Shown here in pieces: positions 1 to 53,591 of a stretch of DNA of 64,000 nucleotides (the stretch's first letter is position 1; every line of letters begins with the position of its first letter). Source of the stretch: Victivallales bacterium (GTDB taxonomy: Bacteria; Verrucomicrobiota; Lentisphaeria; Oligosphaerales; Oligosphaeraceae). The position numbers and the translations under genes are program-made. The notes under the pieces were generated by a model that did not search any database, had not been told where the DNA came from, and was given only the letters and a program-made list of their open reading frames with translations. The stretch spans positions 1-64,000 of the forward strand of contig JAFPYX010000025.1 of assembly GCA_017417585.1 (NCBI GenBank), given 5' to 3'.

Positions 1-339
1 CACTCCAGTTGCCCATTGGCGAAACCTGATGCCTCTCTTTGAATTAACTCGATAGCCAACCGAAATAATCATATCAAGGCTATAGAATTCCACAGAACGC
101 TCTACCCATCTTTCACCTTCCAAGCGAACTATTCGAAAAAATCGAATAGTTGATTCAGCTGGCAATTCCTCATCATTCAAAATATTCTTGACATGGTAGT
201 TTATGGTGTTGACTTTGACCGAAAACAATTCGGCCATCTGGCTCTGCGTGAGCCAAACCGTCTCGTTTTCGAGGCGGACCTCCAGCCGGATGGTCTCGTC
301 CGGCTGATAGACGATGATCTCGTTCTTGGATTCTGGCAT
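1..339 (-). CDS. RhuM-family protein, partial (runs off left edge)
   Basis: Reading the minus strand from the ATG at 339 gives an open frame to the window edge. It begins MPESKNEIIVYQPDETIRLE, the same start as the genes at 1185 and 2082, then a different recognition stretch (LFSVKVNTINYHVKNIL) and the family motif FYSLDMIISVGYRV. It is the last gene, in transcription order, of the tandem RhuM array. RhuM-type proteins carry a KilA-N/HTH-like N-terminal part thought to bind DNA; their role is not known. The C-terminal half lies outside the window, so whether it keeps the PLD-like tail of its paralogues cannot be seen. Confidence 0.8.
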   Translation of the reverse strand, partial: MPESKNEIIVYQPDETIRLEVRLENETVWLTQSQMAELFSVKVNTINYHVKNILNDEELPAESTIRFFRIVRLEGERWVERSVEFYSLDMIISVGYRVNSKRGIRFRQWATGV

Positions 340-357
340 GATGGCGTTCCTTTGGGA

Positions 358-1185
358 CTACGGCAGACGGTCGAGGAGTTCCTTCGCAGGGAGTTCCATT
401 CGCGAGAAGGCGAAGAGGGACTTCCCAAGGTCCTTGAGCGATGCGCCGATGTGATAGACGGTGGCGTCGTCCAGAATCAGGAAGCGGTCGTGGGCACCCT
501 CGTAGGCCTTGATGACGACAGGCGGGTATTGCGCGTTGTAGTGCTGGAGGTCAAGCCGTAGTTTCCTGCTGAAGTGTTTGGTGTAGATGATGGCGGATAC
601 GCCGGGGGCGCGTCCGCCGAGCATGGTCAGCACGCTCTCGTCGATATAGTTGTCGACGAGCACCAGGGACTTCTGCGCACTTTTGATCAGCTTGAGCGCG
701 GTCGCGTAGGCATCGCAGATCTGGCCCTCGAAGAGCACGCCCTCCACTGGCGGCAGCGCGGTCTTGAGAACCACGCCAATCAGTTCCTCCGCCTTAGTCA
801 TGCGATTCTCCAGACGGTCCAGGCGGTCGTTGACCGCATAGCCGCGCAGGAGGTAGTCTTTCAGAATACTGGTAGCCCAACGACGGAACATCGTGCCACG
901 CAATGATTTGACCCGATATCCAACGGAAATGATGACATCTAGATTGTAGAGGGTCAAAGGACGTCCGCGTCGAATATTATGCAGAATTTGCATATTATTC
1001 GGCACATCGACTTCTCCTTCTTCAAATGCATTCTTGATGTGTCTTGTAATGACGGATTGGTCACGTTGAAACAGGATACACATTTGTTCTTGCGTGAGCC
1101 ACACGGTGTCGTTCTCGAGGCGGACTTCGAGGCGGATGGTCTCGTCCGGCTGATAGACGATGATTTCGTTCTTGGATTCTGACAT
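358..1185 (-). CDS. RhuM-family protein with PLD-like C-terminal domain (array copy)
   Basis: A 275-residue protein. Residues 1-33 are the shared array start, about 34-80 form a copy-specific winged-HTH/recognition part (LFQRDQSVITRHIKNAF), and NLDVIISVGYRVKS near residue 80 is the RhuM family hallmark. The C-terminal half (from about residue 145) ends with an HDRFLILDD element and YHIGASLKDLGKS, which resembles one HKD half-site of phospholipase-D-like nucleases with the lysine changed. It is followed 18 bp later by the next copy. AGGAA sits 8 bp before the ATG. Function is inferred only as a DNA-binding, possibly nuclease-like protein next to a defence operon. Confidence 0.8.
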   Translation of the reverse strand: MSESKNEIIVYQPDETIRLEVRLENDTVWLTQEQMCILFQRDQSVITRHIKNAFEEGEVDVPNNMQILHNIRRGRPLTLYNLDVIISVGYRVKSLRGTMFRRWATSILKDYLLRGYAVNDRLDRLENRMTKAEELIGVVLKTALPPVEGVLFEGQICDAYATALKLIKSAQKSLVLVDNYIDESVLTMLGGRAPGVSAIIYTKHFSRKLRLDLQHYNAQYPPVVIKAYEGAHDRFLILDDATVYHIGASLKDLGKSLFAFSRMELPAKELLDRLP

Positions 1186-1203
1186 GATGGTGTTCCTTTG
1201 AGA

Positions 1204-2082
1204 CTACGGCAGACGGTCGAGTAGTTCCTTCGCGGGGAATTCCATTCGCGAGAAGGCGAAGAGGGATTTCCCAAGGTCCTTGAGCGACGCGCCGATATGA
1301 TAGACGGTGGTGTCGTCCAGAATCAGGAAGCGGTCGTGGGCACCCTCGTAGGCCTTGATGACGACAGGCGGATACTGCGCGTTGTAGTGCTGGAGGTCAA
1401 GCCGTAGTTTCCTGCTGAAGTGTTTGGTATAGATGATGGCGGATACGCCTGGACTGCGGGCACCGAGCATGGTCAGGACGCTCTCGTCGATGTAGTTGTC
1501 GATGAGCACCAGGGACTTCTGCGCACTTTTGATGAGCTTGAGCGCGGTCGCGTAGGCATCGCAGATCTGCCCCTCGAAGAGCACGCCCTCCACCGGCGGC
1601 AGCGCGGTCTTGAGGAAGAGCCCGATCTGCTCGTCGTGTCGCGCGACCTTGGTCTCCAGACGATCCAGACGTTCGTTGACCGCATAGCCGCGAGTGAGAT
1701 AGTTCTTCAAGACCTGCGTCGCCCAGCGCCGGAATACCACGCCCTGGCTTGATTTGACTCGATACCCAACGGATAGTATTACGTCGAGGCTGTAATACTC
1801 TATCTGATATGTCTTCCCGTCTGCGGCAGTTGTCGCAATTTTTGCGACAACTGTATTTTGCAAGGGATTTTCAACTGTCGCAAATTTTGCGCCAGTTGAA
1901 AATTCGGAAAGCTCTTCACGCAAAGCATTCGCGATATGTTTTCCAATGGTTTTGATGTCACGTCCAAACAATTGAGCCATTTGATGCCGATTTAGCCACA
2001 CGGTGTCGTTCTCGAGGCGGACTTCGAGGCGGATGGTCTCGTCCGGCTGATAGACGATGATTTCGTTCTTGGATTCTGGCAT
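1204..2082 (-). CDS. RhuM-family protein with PLD-like C-terminal domain (array copy)
   Basis: A 292-residue paralogue of the gene at 358-1185. The first 31 residues and the last 140 or so are nearly identical to that copy, while residues about 32-100 (LFGRDIKTIGKHIANALREE, then a long insert before YYSLDVILSVGYRV) differ completely. The DNA of this middle part is visibly richer in A and T than both ends. The PLD-like tail has HDRFLILDD and HIGASLKDLGKS. It is 18 bp from each neighbouring copy, so the array is probably one transcript. The role is unknown; the layout suggests swapping of DNA-recognition parts on a fixed effector. Confidence 0.8.
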   Translation of the reverse strand: MPESKNEIIVYQPDETIRLEVRLENDTVWLNRHQMAQLFGRDIKTIGKHIANALREELSEFSTGAKFATVENPLQNTVVAKIATTAADGKTYQIEYYSLDVILSVGYRVKSSQGVVFRRWATQVLKNYLTRGYAVNERLDRLETKVARHDEQIGLFLKTALPPVEGVLFEGQICDAYATALKLIKSAQKSLVLIDNYIDESVLTMLGARSPGVSAIIYTKHFSRKLRLDLQHYNAQYPPVVIKAYEGAHDRFLILDDTTVYHIGASLKDLGKSLFAFSRMEFPAKELLDRLP

Positions 2083-2100: not shown

Positions 2101-2332
2101 CTATGGCAGACGGTCGAGGCGGTCGTTGACCGCATAGCCGCGCAGGAGGTAGTCTTTCAGAACATTGGTTGCCCGACGACGGAACATCGTGCCACGCAAT
2201 GATTTGACACGATATCCAACGGAAATGATGACATCCAGAGGATAGAAAGCAACTGTTCGATTCGAAAAAGGAATATGCAAAAAATGCATATTGCTTTCTT
2301 TGATTAATTCACCTTCCGCAAAAACATTGGGG
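2101..2332 (-). pseudogene. RhuM-family remnant (internal deletion, 5' end lost at inserted element)
   Basis: The frame opens at the right edge of this segment with NVFAEGELIKESNMHFLHI and continues through FYPLDVIISVGYRVKSLRGT to YAVNDRLDRLP and a stop. The start of the gene is missing because the inverted-repeat element begins at 2333. The entire PLD-like domain is also missing: the segment jumps from the internal YAVNDRLDRL motif straight to the terminal LDRLP. In intact copies both places carry a CAGACGGTC-AGG stretch, so the loss fits recombination between those short repeats. It is unlikely to be functional. Confidence 0.75.
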
Positions 2333-2810
2333 AGTTATATCGTTAACTTGCCTTGAAACTTTTTTCCCGCGAAACACGCGAAACACACGAAAGGGAACCC
2401 TCCCCGGCAGGCGAAGCCGCTCCGGAAGAGTGCCCGGAGGTGACACGGAAGACGCCGCCGGTCCGAAAGGCAGGCCTTTTGCCCGTCGTCCCCTCCCGCG
2501 TCTCGCCGTCCGCTTCGCGGCCGCCGGCTTTGCCTGCCCAGGCCGCAGTTCACGGCGTCGAATGGTCGACTTTTGGGGATGCATGTCCCCGGCGCGGCAC
2601 GAAGTGACATGCGCGGCCATCCGGGAGGGCGGCGACAGAAAGCGGACTTTCCAGGCGGTGACCTCCAGGATGGCCGCACGGGCCGCCTTTTGGACGGACC
2701 GCAGAGGGACAGGCAGCGATTTTTCCGTGTGTTTCGTGTGTTTCGCGGGAAAATCCCCATTGGCCATGACTGTGTTGGGAAGATTATGGCGGCAAGTTAA
2801 CGGTATAATT
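2333..2810. mobile_element. Inverted-repeat (MITE-like) element, class A ends
   Basis: The segment ends in inverted repeats: AGTTATATCGTTAACTTGCC on the left and the complement of AATTATACCGTTAACTTGCC on the right. Just inside is a second inverted pair, CCCGCGAAACACGCGAAACA against TTTCGTGTGTTTCGCGGG. The interior of about 400 bp is GC-rich and holds no convincing gene. Two elements at 30423 and 32730 share the inner arms and part of the interior but carry other outer ends. No transposase is visible, so any mobility would depend on enzymes encoded elsewhere. It lies between two RhuM gene fragments. Confidence 0.7.
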
Positions 2811-3089
2811 CCCATTGGAAAAGGGCTGAACTCGTGAGATTCGTCGCGAACCTTCCTGTTGAACTTGTGCAATTTTTGCACAGGTTGAAGTCTCTGAAAG
2901 TTCTCCCGTTCGGTAGATGTTCCTGATGTGGCGACTAATTACACTTCGGTCAACGTCGAAAAGTTCGCCAATTCGGCTTTGCGTGAGCCACACGGTGTCG
3001 TTCTCCAGGCGGACTTCGAGGCGGATGGTCTCGTCCGGCTGATAGACGATGATCTCGTTTCTTTCGGGAAGGGCGGACGGGTGAGCCAT
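2811..3089 (-). pseudogene. RhuM-family remnant (N-terminal part, cut by inserted element)
   Basis: The frame starts MAHPSALPERNEIIVYQ, joins the shared array start (ETIRLEVRLENDTVWLTQ) and continues with a copy-specific recognition part, LFDVDRSVISRHIRNIYRTG. It then runs into the inverted-repeat element at 2810 and stops inside it. The segment on the other side (2101-2332) carries a different copy of the same region, so the two pieces come from two genes rather than one split gene. This is the most upstream member of the array in transcription order. Confidence 0.7.
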
Positions 3090-30403: not shown

Positions 30404-30422
30404 ATAAATAGGTTGGCGAAAT

Positions 30423-30707
30423 CACAGCTGTCCGGTTAAAATTTCCCGCGAAGCACGCGAAATACGCGAAAAGCGCACGGCCTGTGGCAGGTGAAGCCTC
30501 TCCGGCATGAGCCGGAGGTGACGCGACATCCGTCGCCGGAGCGAAAGGGCATGCCTTTCATCCTGCGCCGTCTGCCGCGGCGGCCGTTGCGTCCGCCTGC
30601 GGGCGCGGGGGAAGGCGTGGGATGGAACTTTCTTTTGTGTGTTTCGTGTGTTTCGCGGGAAAGCCGTCCCGGTTTTCCCACATTGCAATTTTTACCGAAC
30701 AGCAGTG
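30423..30707. mobile_element. Inverted-repeat (MITE-like) element, class B ends, copy 1
   Basis: It begins CACAGCTGTCCGGTTAAAAT and ends in the complement of CACTGCTGTTCGGTAAAAAT. Inner arms TTTCCCGCGAAGCACGCGAA and GTGTGTTTCGTGTGTTTCGC are shared with the elements at 2333 and 32730. The GC-rich interior of about 200 bp (with GACGCGACATCCGTCGCCGG) has no gene. It has the same orientation as the copy at 32730 on the other side of the next gene. Confidence 0.7.
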
Positions 30708-30810
30708 TGGCGAAATAGGAACAATTCGCTATTTTGTACTCCACGTCTTGTCCCCACTTTATTGATTTCAAGGTCAATTGTCCAAGAGACGCCTGGACAA
30801 TTCGCCACGG

Positions 30811-32729: not shown

Positions 32730-33171
32730 CACAGCTGTCCGGTTAAAATTTCCCGCGAAGCACGCGAAACACACAAAAAGCACACGACCTGCGCTGAAGG
32801 TGAAGCCTCCCCGGCATCAGCCGGAGGTGACGCGACATCCGTCGCCGGAGCGAAAGGAGAGATGCCTTTCACCCTGCGCCGTCTGCCGCGTCCCGCGTCC
32901 GCTTCGCGGCCGCCGTCTTCACCTGCCATGTTCCACGACTTTCCAGTCCGCGGAAACGCCTTTCACCCGAGCGACATGAAGTGGAGCGCGAGGCCGTCCC
33001 GAAGGACGGCGCGGGAAAGCGGGCTTTCCATGCGGCGGCATTCGCGGCGGCCGTTGCGACCGCCTGCGGGCGCGGGGGAAGGCGTGGGAAGCTCCCTTTC
33101 GTGTGTTTCGCGTGTTTCGCGGGAAAGCCGTCCCGGTTTTCCCACATTGCCATTTTTACCGGACAGCAGTG
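32730..33171. mobile_element. Inverted-repeat (MITE-like) element, class B ends, copy 2
   Basis: It begins CACAGCTGTCCGGTTAAAAT and ends in the complement of CACTGCTGTCCGGTAAAAAT. It shares inner arms and most of its outer interior with the 30423 copy but has about 160 bp more in the middle, including a CCGCGTCCCGCGTCCGCTTC stretch similar to one in the element at 2333. No transposase is encoded. Confidence 0.7.
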
Positions 33172-33620
33172 ATGAAAAGGCAACTTTCACAATATAAGTG
33201 TTTGGCAAATCACTGTCGAACGGTAAAAACTGCAATACGGCAAACATGCGGTCGGCAGGGCGAGCCTGGAGGTCTCCCTTGAGGTCTGTGTGGGGGCGGC
33301 CTCAAAGACCCCTCAAAGAGGGGGGCAAAAGGGCATCATGCCCGCATGGCCTTATCCTATAGTGGGTACACCCGCCACCCCCGTCCTCCACCCCTAAGAT
33401 ACAATCGTGCCTGGAGGCCTTCATGTCAAGCCGTCATGAGCGGATTCCCGGCCAATCTAGTTTTTTCCATGATTTTCGGATGATTCGCCTGGATTCTCAA
33501 TTGTTTTTCCCGGCCAGCAGTGTTTGCAGAATATTGAAGTATGTTATAAGGGAAACCGTCCAGTATCTCCGCATTATAGCGGCATGCCTCTGTCAACATC
33601 TCATTTCCAAAAACACTTCC
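33172..33620. other. Gene-free gap upstream of DUF4091 gene
   Basis: No supported gene. It holds a CCCCTCAAAGAGGGG stem (about 33308-33322), a possible terminator, and AT-rich sequence with a TTGCAG/TATAAG pair near 33522-33548 that may start transcription of the DUF4091 gene. The open frame reaching back to 33423 lacks family signals before the signal peptide at 33621. Confidence 0.4.
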
Positions 33621-39248: not shown

Positions 39249-40745
39249 ATGTGTGTGTCTGATGCCATCCGAAACTTTGGCATCATTGCCCACATCGATG
39301 CCGGGAAAACCACACTTACCGAGCGCATCCTCCTGGAAACCGGGGCGGTGCGCTTTGGTGGCGCAGTGGACGAGGGAACCACGGTCAGCGACTACCTCCT
39401 GCAGGAGCGCGAGCGCGGCATCTCCATCGTCAGTTCGGCCATCACCTGCCACTGGAAAGAGTGGCAGTTCAACCTGGTCGACACTCCCGGCCACATCGAT
39501 TTCACCGCGGAAGTCGAGCGTTCGCTCCGCGTGATGGACGCCGCCGTCGCGGTCTTCTGCGGACTTCGCGGCGTGCAGGCCCAGTCCGAAATGGTCTGGC
39601 GGCGCGCCCGGCGCTACGGCCTGCCGGCCCTGGCCTTCGTCAACAAGCTTGACCGCGAGGGCGCCGACTTCGATGCCGTGGTCGCCCAGCTGGCGCGGCT
39701 CTTCGCGCCAGCCCGGCCGCTGGTGCTCACCAGGCCATTGCCGCATGGTGGCGACCTTTTGGACATCCTGGGCAGGAAAGTCATAAGTAATCCAGAGTCA
39801 ACTACTTATGACTACAGTCAGGAGCTGGCCGCGCGACGCGGCGAACTTCTGGAGCAGCTTGCCGAGACGGACGAGGAGGTCCTCAAACGCTTTGTGGCGG
39901 ACGAGGAACTCGCCGATGAAGAGCTGGCTGGCGCCATCCGGCGTCAGACGCTTCGGCTCGCGGCCGTCCCGGTCTTCGCCGGCAGCGCCGCGACGGGCCT
40001 GGGCGTTGCCCCGCTGCTGGACGCAGTGGGGAGGTTCCTGCCGGGGCCTGCCGAACGGCTTTCCTCCAGCGCCTCCAGGAAGCACTTCCCGGTCTCGCGG
40101 GAGCGTCTGAAGGCGCAGGACGGGCATGACTTCGTGGTGGCGGCAGTCGTCAAGATTGTCCGCACTGCCTGGCCGGGCGACTACGCGGTCATCCGCATCT
40201 ACAGCGGCACCCTCCGTCCCGGGGTGGTGCTTTGCGACCAGAACCGGCCGCTTTCGGGGGCCGTGGGCGCCATCTGGCGGCTCAATGCGGCCGACACGAG
40301 CGAGCTTCCCGCCGCCGAGGCGGGGGAGATCGTGGGCGTCGCCTTGGCGGATGCGGCTCCGCTGCCGGCCTTCCGCGCCGGCGACACGCTGGTCGAGGAA
40401 GGCGGCCCGCAGTTCCGCCTTGCGCGGATGCGCTTTCCGGAGCCCGTGGTCTGGGAGGTCTTCGCCCCCGCCACCGACGCCGACCGCGCTGGCCGAGGAG
40501 GACCCCACGCTGCACTTGCGGCCGGGGCCGGTCGAAGGCCAGTTCTCGGTCTCCGGCATGGGCGAACTCCATCTGGAGGTCGTCCGGGAACGCCTCCGTT
40601 CCGAACATCGCATCTTGGTCCGCACGGGCCAGCCGCAGGTCGCCTACCGCGCGACCATCGCCCGCCCAGTGCGCCTCAAACGGGAGTTTCTCAGGCAGCT
40701 CTCACCCGCCGTGGCCATCCAGGCCGCCGTGGAACTTATGCTTGA
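39249..40745 (+). CDS. fusA: Elongation factor G-type GTPase, N-terminal part (frameshift near 40485)
   Basis: The frame encodes the G domain and domain II of EF-G: IAHIDAGKTTLTERIL is G1, ERGISIVSSAIT G2, DTPGHIDF G3 and FVNKLDREGADF G4. Homology holds to about residue 412 ([20 protein letters not shown]), after which this frame reads nonsense; the remaining domains are in the +1 frame from 40483. In EF-G the lost stretch would be the short helix before LAEEDPT, and about eight codons seem missing. The place after rpsG is that of fusA, but the sequence is more divergent than the neighbours and could be an EF-G2-type paralogue. A sequencing error, a real mutation or programmed shifting are all possible. 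Confidence 0.8.
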   Translation: MCVSDAIRNFGIIAHIDAGKTTLTERILLETGAVRFGGAVDEGTTVSDYLLQERERGISIVSSAITCHWKEWQFNLVDTPGHIDFTAEVERSLRVMDAAVAVFCGLRGVQAQSEMVWRRARRYGLPALAFVNKLDREGADFDAVVAQLARLFAPARPLVLTRPLPHGGDLLDILGRKVISNPESTTYDYSQELAARRGELLEQLAETDEEVLKRFVADEELADEELAGAIRRQTLRLAAVPVFAGSAATGLGVAPLLDAVGRFLPGPAERLSSSASRKHFPVSRERLKAQDGHDFVVAAVVKIVRTAWPGDYAVIRIYSGTLRPGVVLCDQNRPLSGAVGAIWRLNAADTSELPAAEAGEIVGVALADAAPLPAFRAGDTLVEEGGPQFRLARMRFPEPVVWEVFAPATDADRAGRGGPHAALAAGAGRRPVLGLRHGRTPSGGRPGTPPFRTSHLGPHGPAAGRLPRDHRPPSAPQTGVSQAALTRRGHPGRRGTYA

Positions 40746-53191: not shown

Positions 53192-53296
53192 GATGCGTAT
53201 GTCTCCATTTATGATATCCTGAACGAGTTTCTTTCCCAGGGGAGGCTGGATCTATATGTCACGGGATCCAATTCGAAGTTGCTGCTGTCCGGTTAA
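53192..53296 (+). pseudogene. Remnant of an AAA_14/DUF4143 ATPase gene
   Basis: The plus strand encodes AYVSIYDILNEFLSQGRLDL then YVTGSNSKLLLSG and a stop. YVTGSNSK is the sensor motif of the family and the piece resembles residues 95-130 of the protein at 23276-24529. The coding sequence ends within the left terminal repeat of the class B element (CTGCTGTCCGGTTAA), which supplies the stop codon. Nothing of the Walker motifs or the C-terminal half remains. Confidence 0.7.
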
Positions 53297-53408
53297 AAAT
53301 CTTCGCATGAGGCGTGGCCTTCCACGCAGAGTTTGAATTATGGAGCCATCGCGCAGCGCCGCGAAGACGGGTGGGATGGGAGTTTTATAATTGCCTTGGA
53401 CAGCAGTG
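53282..53408. mobile_element. Short inverted-repeat element, class B ends
   Basis: CTGCTGTCCGGTTAAAAAT at the left and the complement of CACTGCTGTCCAAGGCAATT at the right mark the ends; the TGTCC end sequence equals that of the elements at 30423 and 32730. The interior is only about 90 bp and unrelated to theirs, and the CCCGCGAAACACG inner arms are missing. Confidence 0.55.
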
Positions 53409-53432
53409 ACCTCTACAATACACAAAAATGGC

Positions 53433-53564
53433 AGCTATATCTTTAACTTGCCTAATGGGCAAATGGGATGAATGAGACACATAGGACATCTGGGACACAA
53501 GAGGCAAGGTAATCGAAAACCACCGTCCCATTCGTCCTACGGGTCCCAATCGTCCCATTGATCC
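53433..53564. repeat. Solo class A end and 9-bp repeats in a gene-free gap
   Basis: AGCTATATCTTTAACTTGCC (53433-53452) matches the class A terminal repeat at 2333 in 18 of 20 bases, but no partner end follows. Then come GAGACACAT, AGGACATCT, GGGACACAA (about 53470-53496) and, after 28 bp, GTCCCATTC, GTCCTACGG, GTCCCAATC, GTCCCATTG (53525-53560), 9-bp units facing the other way. No gene is supported from 53409 to 53591. Confidence 0.5.
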
Positions 53565-53591
53565 GAATAGGCGTTAAATAATCCCCAAATA

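What the first reader, a model, noticed from the sequence alone, without database searches (positions are those of the whole stretch)
2333..2810. Family of non-autonomous inverted-repeat elements with two kinds of ends
Elements at 2333, 30423 and 32730 share inner arms (CCCGCGAAACACGCGAAA type) and GC-rich filling but differ in outer ends: GTTAACTTGCC (class A) versus CTGTCCGGTTAAAA (class B). A shorter element at 53282 and a solo class A end at 53433 add members. Combining one core with two end types is unusual for MITEs and suggests two mobilising enzymes or end capture.
Basis: seen in the sequence. Interest (0 to 1): 0.6.

Follow-up and report, generated by a model that had tools for sequence, protein, structure and literature searches.

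The report
One folded core, several transposon ends
These are small passenger transposons of a rumen bacterium in which one folded, GC-rich core is carried by the ends of at least two unrelated jumping-gene families, and the core has been swapped between end types during the history of the genus.

Summary
Elements 2330-2813, 30423-30707 and 32730-33171 share a core bounded by CCCGCGAAACACGCGAAA arms but differ in their ends.

Class A ends (231 in four genomes of the genus, 0 in the control) make exactly 8-bp target duplications; one lies ~80 bp from the only IS1595-family transposase gene found. Class B ends (120, control 0) make exactly 9-bp duplications and flank IS4-family transposase genes. 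Core-bearing copies of both classes carry perfect duplications, so two unrelated transposases most likely move homologous cargo in trans.

Many A and B copies lack the core. The core also sits behind a third end type (C), probably a fourth (D), and one copy has A on one side and C on the other. A single origin of A-ended cores is rejected (p-AU 3.6e-5): the 2333 core groups with B-ended cores.

The ~130-bp filling keeps a branched fold through compensatory changes. Its arms also occur alone, often as inverted pairs, in other phyla.

How the core changes ends is unproven; B copies with an A MITE inserted between end and core suggest one route. New variant of a known kind (mosaic MITEs).

The parts
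2330..2813 (+). Class A-ended, core-bearing element (484 bp)
   Evidence: sequence; boundaries agree with paralogue alignments of both flanks; no 8-bp duplication
2330..2352 (+). Class A left end GGGAGTTATATCGTTAACTTGCC
2791..2813 (-). Class A right end (reads GGGAATTATACCGTTAACTTGCC on -)
2366..2392 (+). Core arm CCCGCGAAACACGCGAAACACACGAAA (9-nt period)
2723..2749 (-). Core arm, inverted
2405..2540 (+). Structured module of the core
   Evidence: covariance model 94 bits (this sequence is in the model); compensatory changes
30423..30707 (+). Class B-ended, core-bearing element (285 bp) with perfect 9-bp duplication TGGCGAAAT
30414..30422 (.). Target duplication, left copy TGGCGAAAT (right copy 30708-30716)
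30445..30471 (+). Core arm
30633..30659 (-). Core arm, inverted
30485..30603 (+). Structured module of the core
   Evidence: covariance model 61.6 bits; not in the model's seed
32730..33171 (+). Class B-ended, core-bearing element (442 bp); duplication ATGAAACGG / ATGAAAAGG (8 of 9)
32752..32778 (+). Core arm
33097..33123 (-). Core arm, inverted
32794..32929 (+). Structured module of the core
   Evidence: covariance model 117.7 bits (this sequence is in the model)
33211..33522 (.). Coreless class B relative (B2 interior), ends decayed, no clear duplication
   Evidence: matches B2 elements elsewhere in the genome; sequence
53280..53408 (+). Coreless short class B element with a decayed right end
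53430..53586 (+). Coreless A1-type class A MITE with a decayed right end (the finding's 'solo end')

Best explanation
They are non-autonomous transposable elements (MITE-like) of two independent families. Class A ends are cut and joined in trans by an IS1595-family transposase (8-bp duplications); class B ends by an IS4-family transposase (9-bp duplications). Between the ends sits interchangeable cargo. One cargo, the core, is a unit of two inverted 9-nt-periodic arms around a branched, GC-rich palindromic fold, and it has moved between end sets more than once. Shown by sequence: shared core, two end sets, length-specific duplications, matching ends at transposase genes, polyphyly of A-ended cores, nested A-in-B copies. 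Inferred: trans-mobilisation by those enzymes. Least certain: the core changes ends by ectopic recombination or template switching at its near-identical arms, helped by nested insertion of one MITE beside the core arm of another.
For: Ends. Duplications: 10 of 36 A elements match at 8 bp with at most 1 mismatch (shuffled mean 0.6) and none at 9-10 bp; 10 of 20 B elements at 9 bp (shuffled mean 0.5) and none at 6, 7, 8 or 10 bp. Core-bearing copies with perfect duplications: A, G003:C32 GAGAATAC and G003:C157 TAAACTTT; B, window 30423 TGGCGAAAT and C63:30402 AGACTTCGT, G003:C42 TTTTTGTGT. Enzymes: IS1595 transposase ORF ~80 bp inside a class A end (PF12762 5e-44, NF033547 2e-58); IS4 ORFs beside class B ends with the IS4 YREK motif; two contig ends of G003 look like halves of one IS4 copy with 9-bp duplication CAGCAGCAA. 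Exchange: 2333 core closer to B cores than to the main group of A cores; tree; AU test p 3.6e-5 against one clade of A-ended cores. Nesting: A1 MITE with duplication TAAAATTT between B end and core arm at C63:56313, and a similar arrangement on C16. Same decayed A end and flank with different interiors in G002:C171 and G003:C42. IS1595: usually 8-bp duplications (PMC8101967); IS4: about 10 bp (PMC2266710).
Against: Only one IS1595 gene was found in four genomes, in a 3.6-kb composite whose two ends have no matching duplication; the class A enzyme is assigned by one end match plus duplication length. No duplication flanks the core itself and no undoubted pre-core element was found (the short copy at C68:58777 can equally be a deletion). 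No A/B hybrid-ended core was seen, only an A/C one. Assemblies are fragmented MAGs (own genome 8.5% contamination). Movement was not observed.
Confidence: 0.8

Rival explanations
1. The core is itself a mobile element (a third class) that inserted separately into A, B, C and D elements, by an enzyme that leaves no target duplication.
For: Core found behind A, B, C and D-type flanks, and one-armed near a gene stop; arms, often paired, stand alone in Planctomycetes, Acidobacteriota, Opitutae, KSB1 and others.
Against: No duplication next to the core; junctions are fixed within each end subtype; no enzyme identified; the structured module was found only in this genus among the loci held.
Confidence: 0.3
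2. Each end class captured the core once, long ago, and the cores then diverged with their ends.
For: Most A cores form one group and most B cores another.
Against: A-ended cores fall into two separate clades, one of them with B-ended cores; a single clade is rejected, p 3.6e-5.
Confidence: 0.1
3. The elements are fixed structured-RNA genes or recombination sites, not mobile DNA; the ends are conserved flanks.
For: The module keeps a fold with compensatory changes.
Against: Length-specific duplications, absence from the window's insertion points in sister genomes, dozens of copies in unrelated contexts, no Rfam match in the window.
Confidence: 0.04

Closest known systems
MITEs of prokaryotes (reviews PMC10969869, PMC2229807)
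   Same: Short, no transposase gene, terminal inverted repeats, target duplications, ends shared with an IS
   Different: Here one homologous core is shared by element families with unrelated ends; the words mosaic, chimeric and nested do not occur in the main text of PMC10969869
TIMEs: mosaic non-autonomous elements with Tn3 ends (PMC4133298)
   Same: Non-autonomous elements whose ends carry varied core modules
   Different: There one end set with many cargoes; here also one cargo with several end sets, of IS1595 and IS4 type
IS1595-family insertion sequences (PMC8101967)
   Same: 8-bp duplications; a class A end beside an IS1595 transposase gene; GG tips as in the related Merlin elements
   Different: These copies carry no gene; only one transposase copy was found
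IS4-family insertion sequences (PMC2266710)
   Same: Duplications near one helix turn; class B ends beside IS4 transposase genes with the YREK motif
   Different: These copies carry no gene; the subgroup within IS4 was not assigned
REP/BIME and ERIC-type intergenic palindromes (general knowledge; abstract of PMC2817692)
   Same: The core's paired arms look like widespread intergenic palindromes
   Different: No link to a REP-associated transposase was tested; the arms have a 9-nt period and here sit inside transposon ends

Membership tests
MITE (non-autonomous IS derivative) | Short element without a transposase gene | tested here: met
   ORFs overlapping the window elements match no family above its cut-off (best a sub-cut-off hit, E 0.0016)
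MITE (non-autonomous IS derivative) | Terminal inverted repeats | tested here: met
MITE (non-autonomous IS derivative) | Target-site duplications of fixed length | tested here: met
   8 bp for A, 9 bp for B, against shuffles; not present at 2333 itself
MITE (non-autonomous IS derivative) | Movement in trans | not testable with these tools
   needs an assay
IS1595-family derivative (class A) | Ends shared with an IS1595 element | tested here: inconclusive
   one end ~80 bp from the single IS1595 ORF; other end 3.6 kb away without matching duplication
IS1595-family derivative (class A) | 8-bp duplications | tested here: met
   family trait from PMC8101967
IS4-family derivative (class B) | Ends shared with IS4 elements | tested here: met
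   B ends on the 3' side (L026, L052, L313) and 5' side (L318, L320) of IS4 ORFs
IS4-family derivative (class B) | Duplications of about one helix turn; YREK motif in the transposase | tested here: met
   9 bp; YKRRWQIELFFKWIK; family traits from PMC2266710
TIME-COMP-like composite | Core flanked by two complete MITE copies | tested here: not met
   core-bearing A and B elements have single ends on each side
Known structured RNA (Rfam) | Match at a family's gathering score | tested here: not met
   no match in the window

The most novel reading that the evidence does not exclude
The core is a selected, folded DNA or RNA unit (a parasite of parasites) that persists by riding on several unrelated transposon end sets and exchanging ends through its arms, and these arms belong to a widespread, undescribed class of bacterial intergenic palindromes.
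Probability: 0.25. Interest if true: 0.75.

Novelty: new variant of a known kind. Interest (0 to 1): 0.52.

Why it matters
Non-autonomous transposons are usually thought of as decayed relatives of one parent. Here one folded cargo is carried by ends of unrelated families, so a cargo lineage could outlive the loss of any one transposase. It gives a tractable case for asking whether such cargo is under selection, and it draws attention to a cross-phylum palindromic motif for which no description turned up in the open literature searched.

Tried and rejected
ISAs1-family origin of class B: PF13808 absent from the own genome. ISL3 as the class A source was a first guess, dropped when the IS1595 ORF was found. 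A duplication around the core itself: none seen in any context. Coding function of the core: no family match above cut-off. Viral spread: core, A and B patterns gave 0 exact matches in viral contigs. Module in other phyla: no significant covariance-model match in 49 loci outside the genus. Literature for the motif by its letters: 0 papers.

Full report
WHAT IS THERE. The window is part of contig C95 of a 3.26-Mb draft genome. Other members of the genus appear to be Victivallales MAGs from buffalo and sheep rumen (RGIG6713, RGIG7131, RGIG8156; contig lengths and positions agree). Three elements share inverted arms of the type CCCGCGAAACACGCGAAA and a GC-rich filling: 2330-2813 with class A ends, 30423-30707 and 32730-33171 with class B ends. 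The short element at 53280 is class B without the core, and the 'solo end' at 53433 is a whole A1-type class A MITE with a decayed right end.

NUMBERS. Class A ends (GGRAATTATAYMKTTRACTTGCC, up to 3 mismatches) number 60, 71, 37 and 63 in the four genomes of the genus, 231 in all, against none for the reversed pattern. Class B ends (CACWRCTGTCCGGTWAAAA, up to 2 mismatches) number 45, 11, 20 and 44, 120 in all, against none.

MOBILITY. In a catalogue of paired ends, 10 of 36 A elements have flanks that repeat at exactly 8 bp with at most one mismatch, 6 of them perfectly; at 9 or 10 bp there are none. For B, 10 of 20 repeat at exactly 9 bp, 4 perfectly, and none at 6, 7, 8 or 10 bp. Shuffled flanks give means of about 0.6 and 0.5. 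Core-bearing elements are among the perfect cases of both classes: A in G003:C32 (GAGAATAC) and G003:C157 (TAAACTTT); B at window 30423 (TGGCGAAAT) and C63:30402 (AGACTTCGT), and also G003:C42 (TTTTTGTGT). So the core has been carried as a unit by both end sets. The 2333 copy has no such duplication; its left and right flanks match different paralogous gene copies, as expected after recombination between copies or a deletion.

SISTER GENOMES. The gene between the two window B elements has orthologues at 76% identity in all three sister genomes. None has the window's copies at the window's points, while G003 has its own B+core copy nearby with its own duplication.

ENZYMES. A class A end lies about 80 bp upstream of an ORF of 318 codons that matches DDE_Tnp_IS1595 (PF12762, 5e-44) and the NCBI IS1595 model (2e-58). 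It is the only such gene found in the four genomes, and the far end of that composite lies 3.6 kb away without a matching duplication. IS1595 elements usually make 8-bp duplications (PMC8101967). Class B ends lie beside IS4-family ORFs on their 3' side (L026, L052, L313) and 5' side (L318, L320). The ORFs carry the YREK motif, and IS4 elements make duplications of about one helix turn (PMC2266710). Two contig ends in G003 appear to be halves of one IS4 copy with the duplication CAGCAGCAA (an inference across an assembly gap).

INTERIORS ARE INTERCHANGEABLE. Class A elements carry at least three interiors: A1 with 9-nt-periodic GGGAC repeats, A2, and the core. Class B elements carry the core, B2 or B3. 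In G002:C171 and G003:C42 the same decayed A end and flank adjoin different interiors, A2 and A1.

THE CORE CHANGES ENDS. Filling similarity puts the A-ended 2333 core nearer to the full-length B-ended cores and to G002:C215 (z 31-36) than to the main group of A cores (z 6-20) (row of 2333). A maximum-likelihood tree of the module groups 2333 with A-ended cores of G001 and G003 and one B-ended core of G002 (98/97), next to the B cores (95/92), far from the main A group, which also holds D-flanked and C/A-flanked cores. One clade of all A-ended cores is rejected (p-AU 3.6e-5). The B-ended row in the 2333 group has a long branch, so its exact place is less sure than the split of the A-ended rows. 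A third end type, C (GGACAGGTTTAATTTGATGGATG with an inverted partner in L264 and L271), a recurrent flank D, and one core with A on one side and C on the other extend the pattern.

ROUTE. At C63:56313 an A1 MITE with an 8-bp duplication sits between the B end and the core arm, and C16 has a similar arrangement. Such nesting brings A ends next to the core. The steps from there to a clean A+core element are inferred, not shown. No duplication flanks the core in any context.

FOLD. The filling holds a 108-143 nt module with a closing stem and inner hairpins. On 15 cores of A, B, C and unassigned ends, 91% of cells pair, 11 of 26 pairs show changes on both sides, and none of 500 shuffles reaches these values; versions slid by 1-3 columns fall to 40-56% paired. 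Related sequences can exceed shuffles without structure, and the structure was derived from this alignment, so this is support, not proof. A covariance model finds the three window cores strongly (62-118 bits, two of them in its seed) and none significantly in 49 loci outside the genus. It also scores on the opposite strand, so RNA and DNA roles cannot be told apart.

ARMS ELSEWHERE. The 21-base arm start occurs exactly in Planctomycetes, Acidobacteriota, Verrucomicrobia, KSB1 and Neomarinimicrobiota MAGs, often as an inverted pair 60-430 bp apart without A or B ends. No paper in the library prints these letters.

VERDICT. A real, well-supported set of mosaic MITEs served by two transposase families. 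The exchange of a folded core between end types is the unusual part; its mechanism and the core's role remain open.

Noticed in passing
L248 and L258 (two Acidobacteriota MAGs): Paired CGCGAAA-type arms stand after what looks like the same gene end in both genomes, suggesting a fixed rather than recently mobile copy there.
   Followed up: no
L246, L263, L290, L297, L310 (Planctomycetales JACRIH): A multi-copy family (mostly ~150 bp) with the same arms but framed by TAGCCCGGATTATT-type sequence, possibly another end type for the same motif.
   Followed up: no
L204 (G000:C14:16413-20046): IS1595 transposase plus other ORFs between two class A ends 3.6 kb apart: a possible IS1595 element with passenger genes, without matching duplication.
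   Followed up: partly
window 33211-33522: A decayed class B element with the B2 interior lies just downstream of the 32730 element.
   Followed up: partly
window 245-2082 and 2784-3089: Repeated paralogous ORFs (copies up to 87% identical) flank the 2333 element; by eye they resemble RhuM-type genes (recalled, not tested).
   Followed up: no
window 40336-40433: ARAGORN calls a 98-base tRNA-Gly(tcc), unusually long for this tRNA.
   Followed up: no
G000:C4:42181-43125 (L314): A related IS4 element with ends CACTAGTGTCCCRTTAAAA; a close variant of this end recurs near several contig ends, so it is probably multi-copy.
   Followed up: partly
L117, L131, L135, L065 and others: Other short-period intergenic words (e.g. 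CTAATGAACGCTAATGCACGC, GGGACATATGGGACA) recur in these genomes, much like the core arms and the A1 interiors.
   Followed up: no
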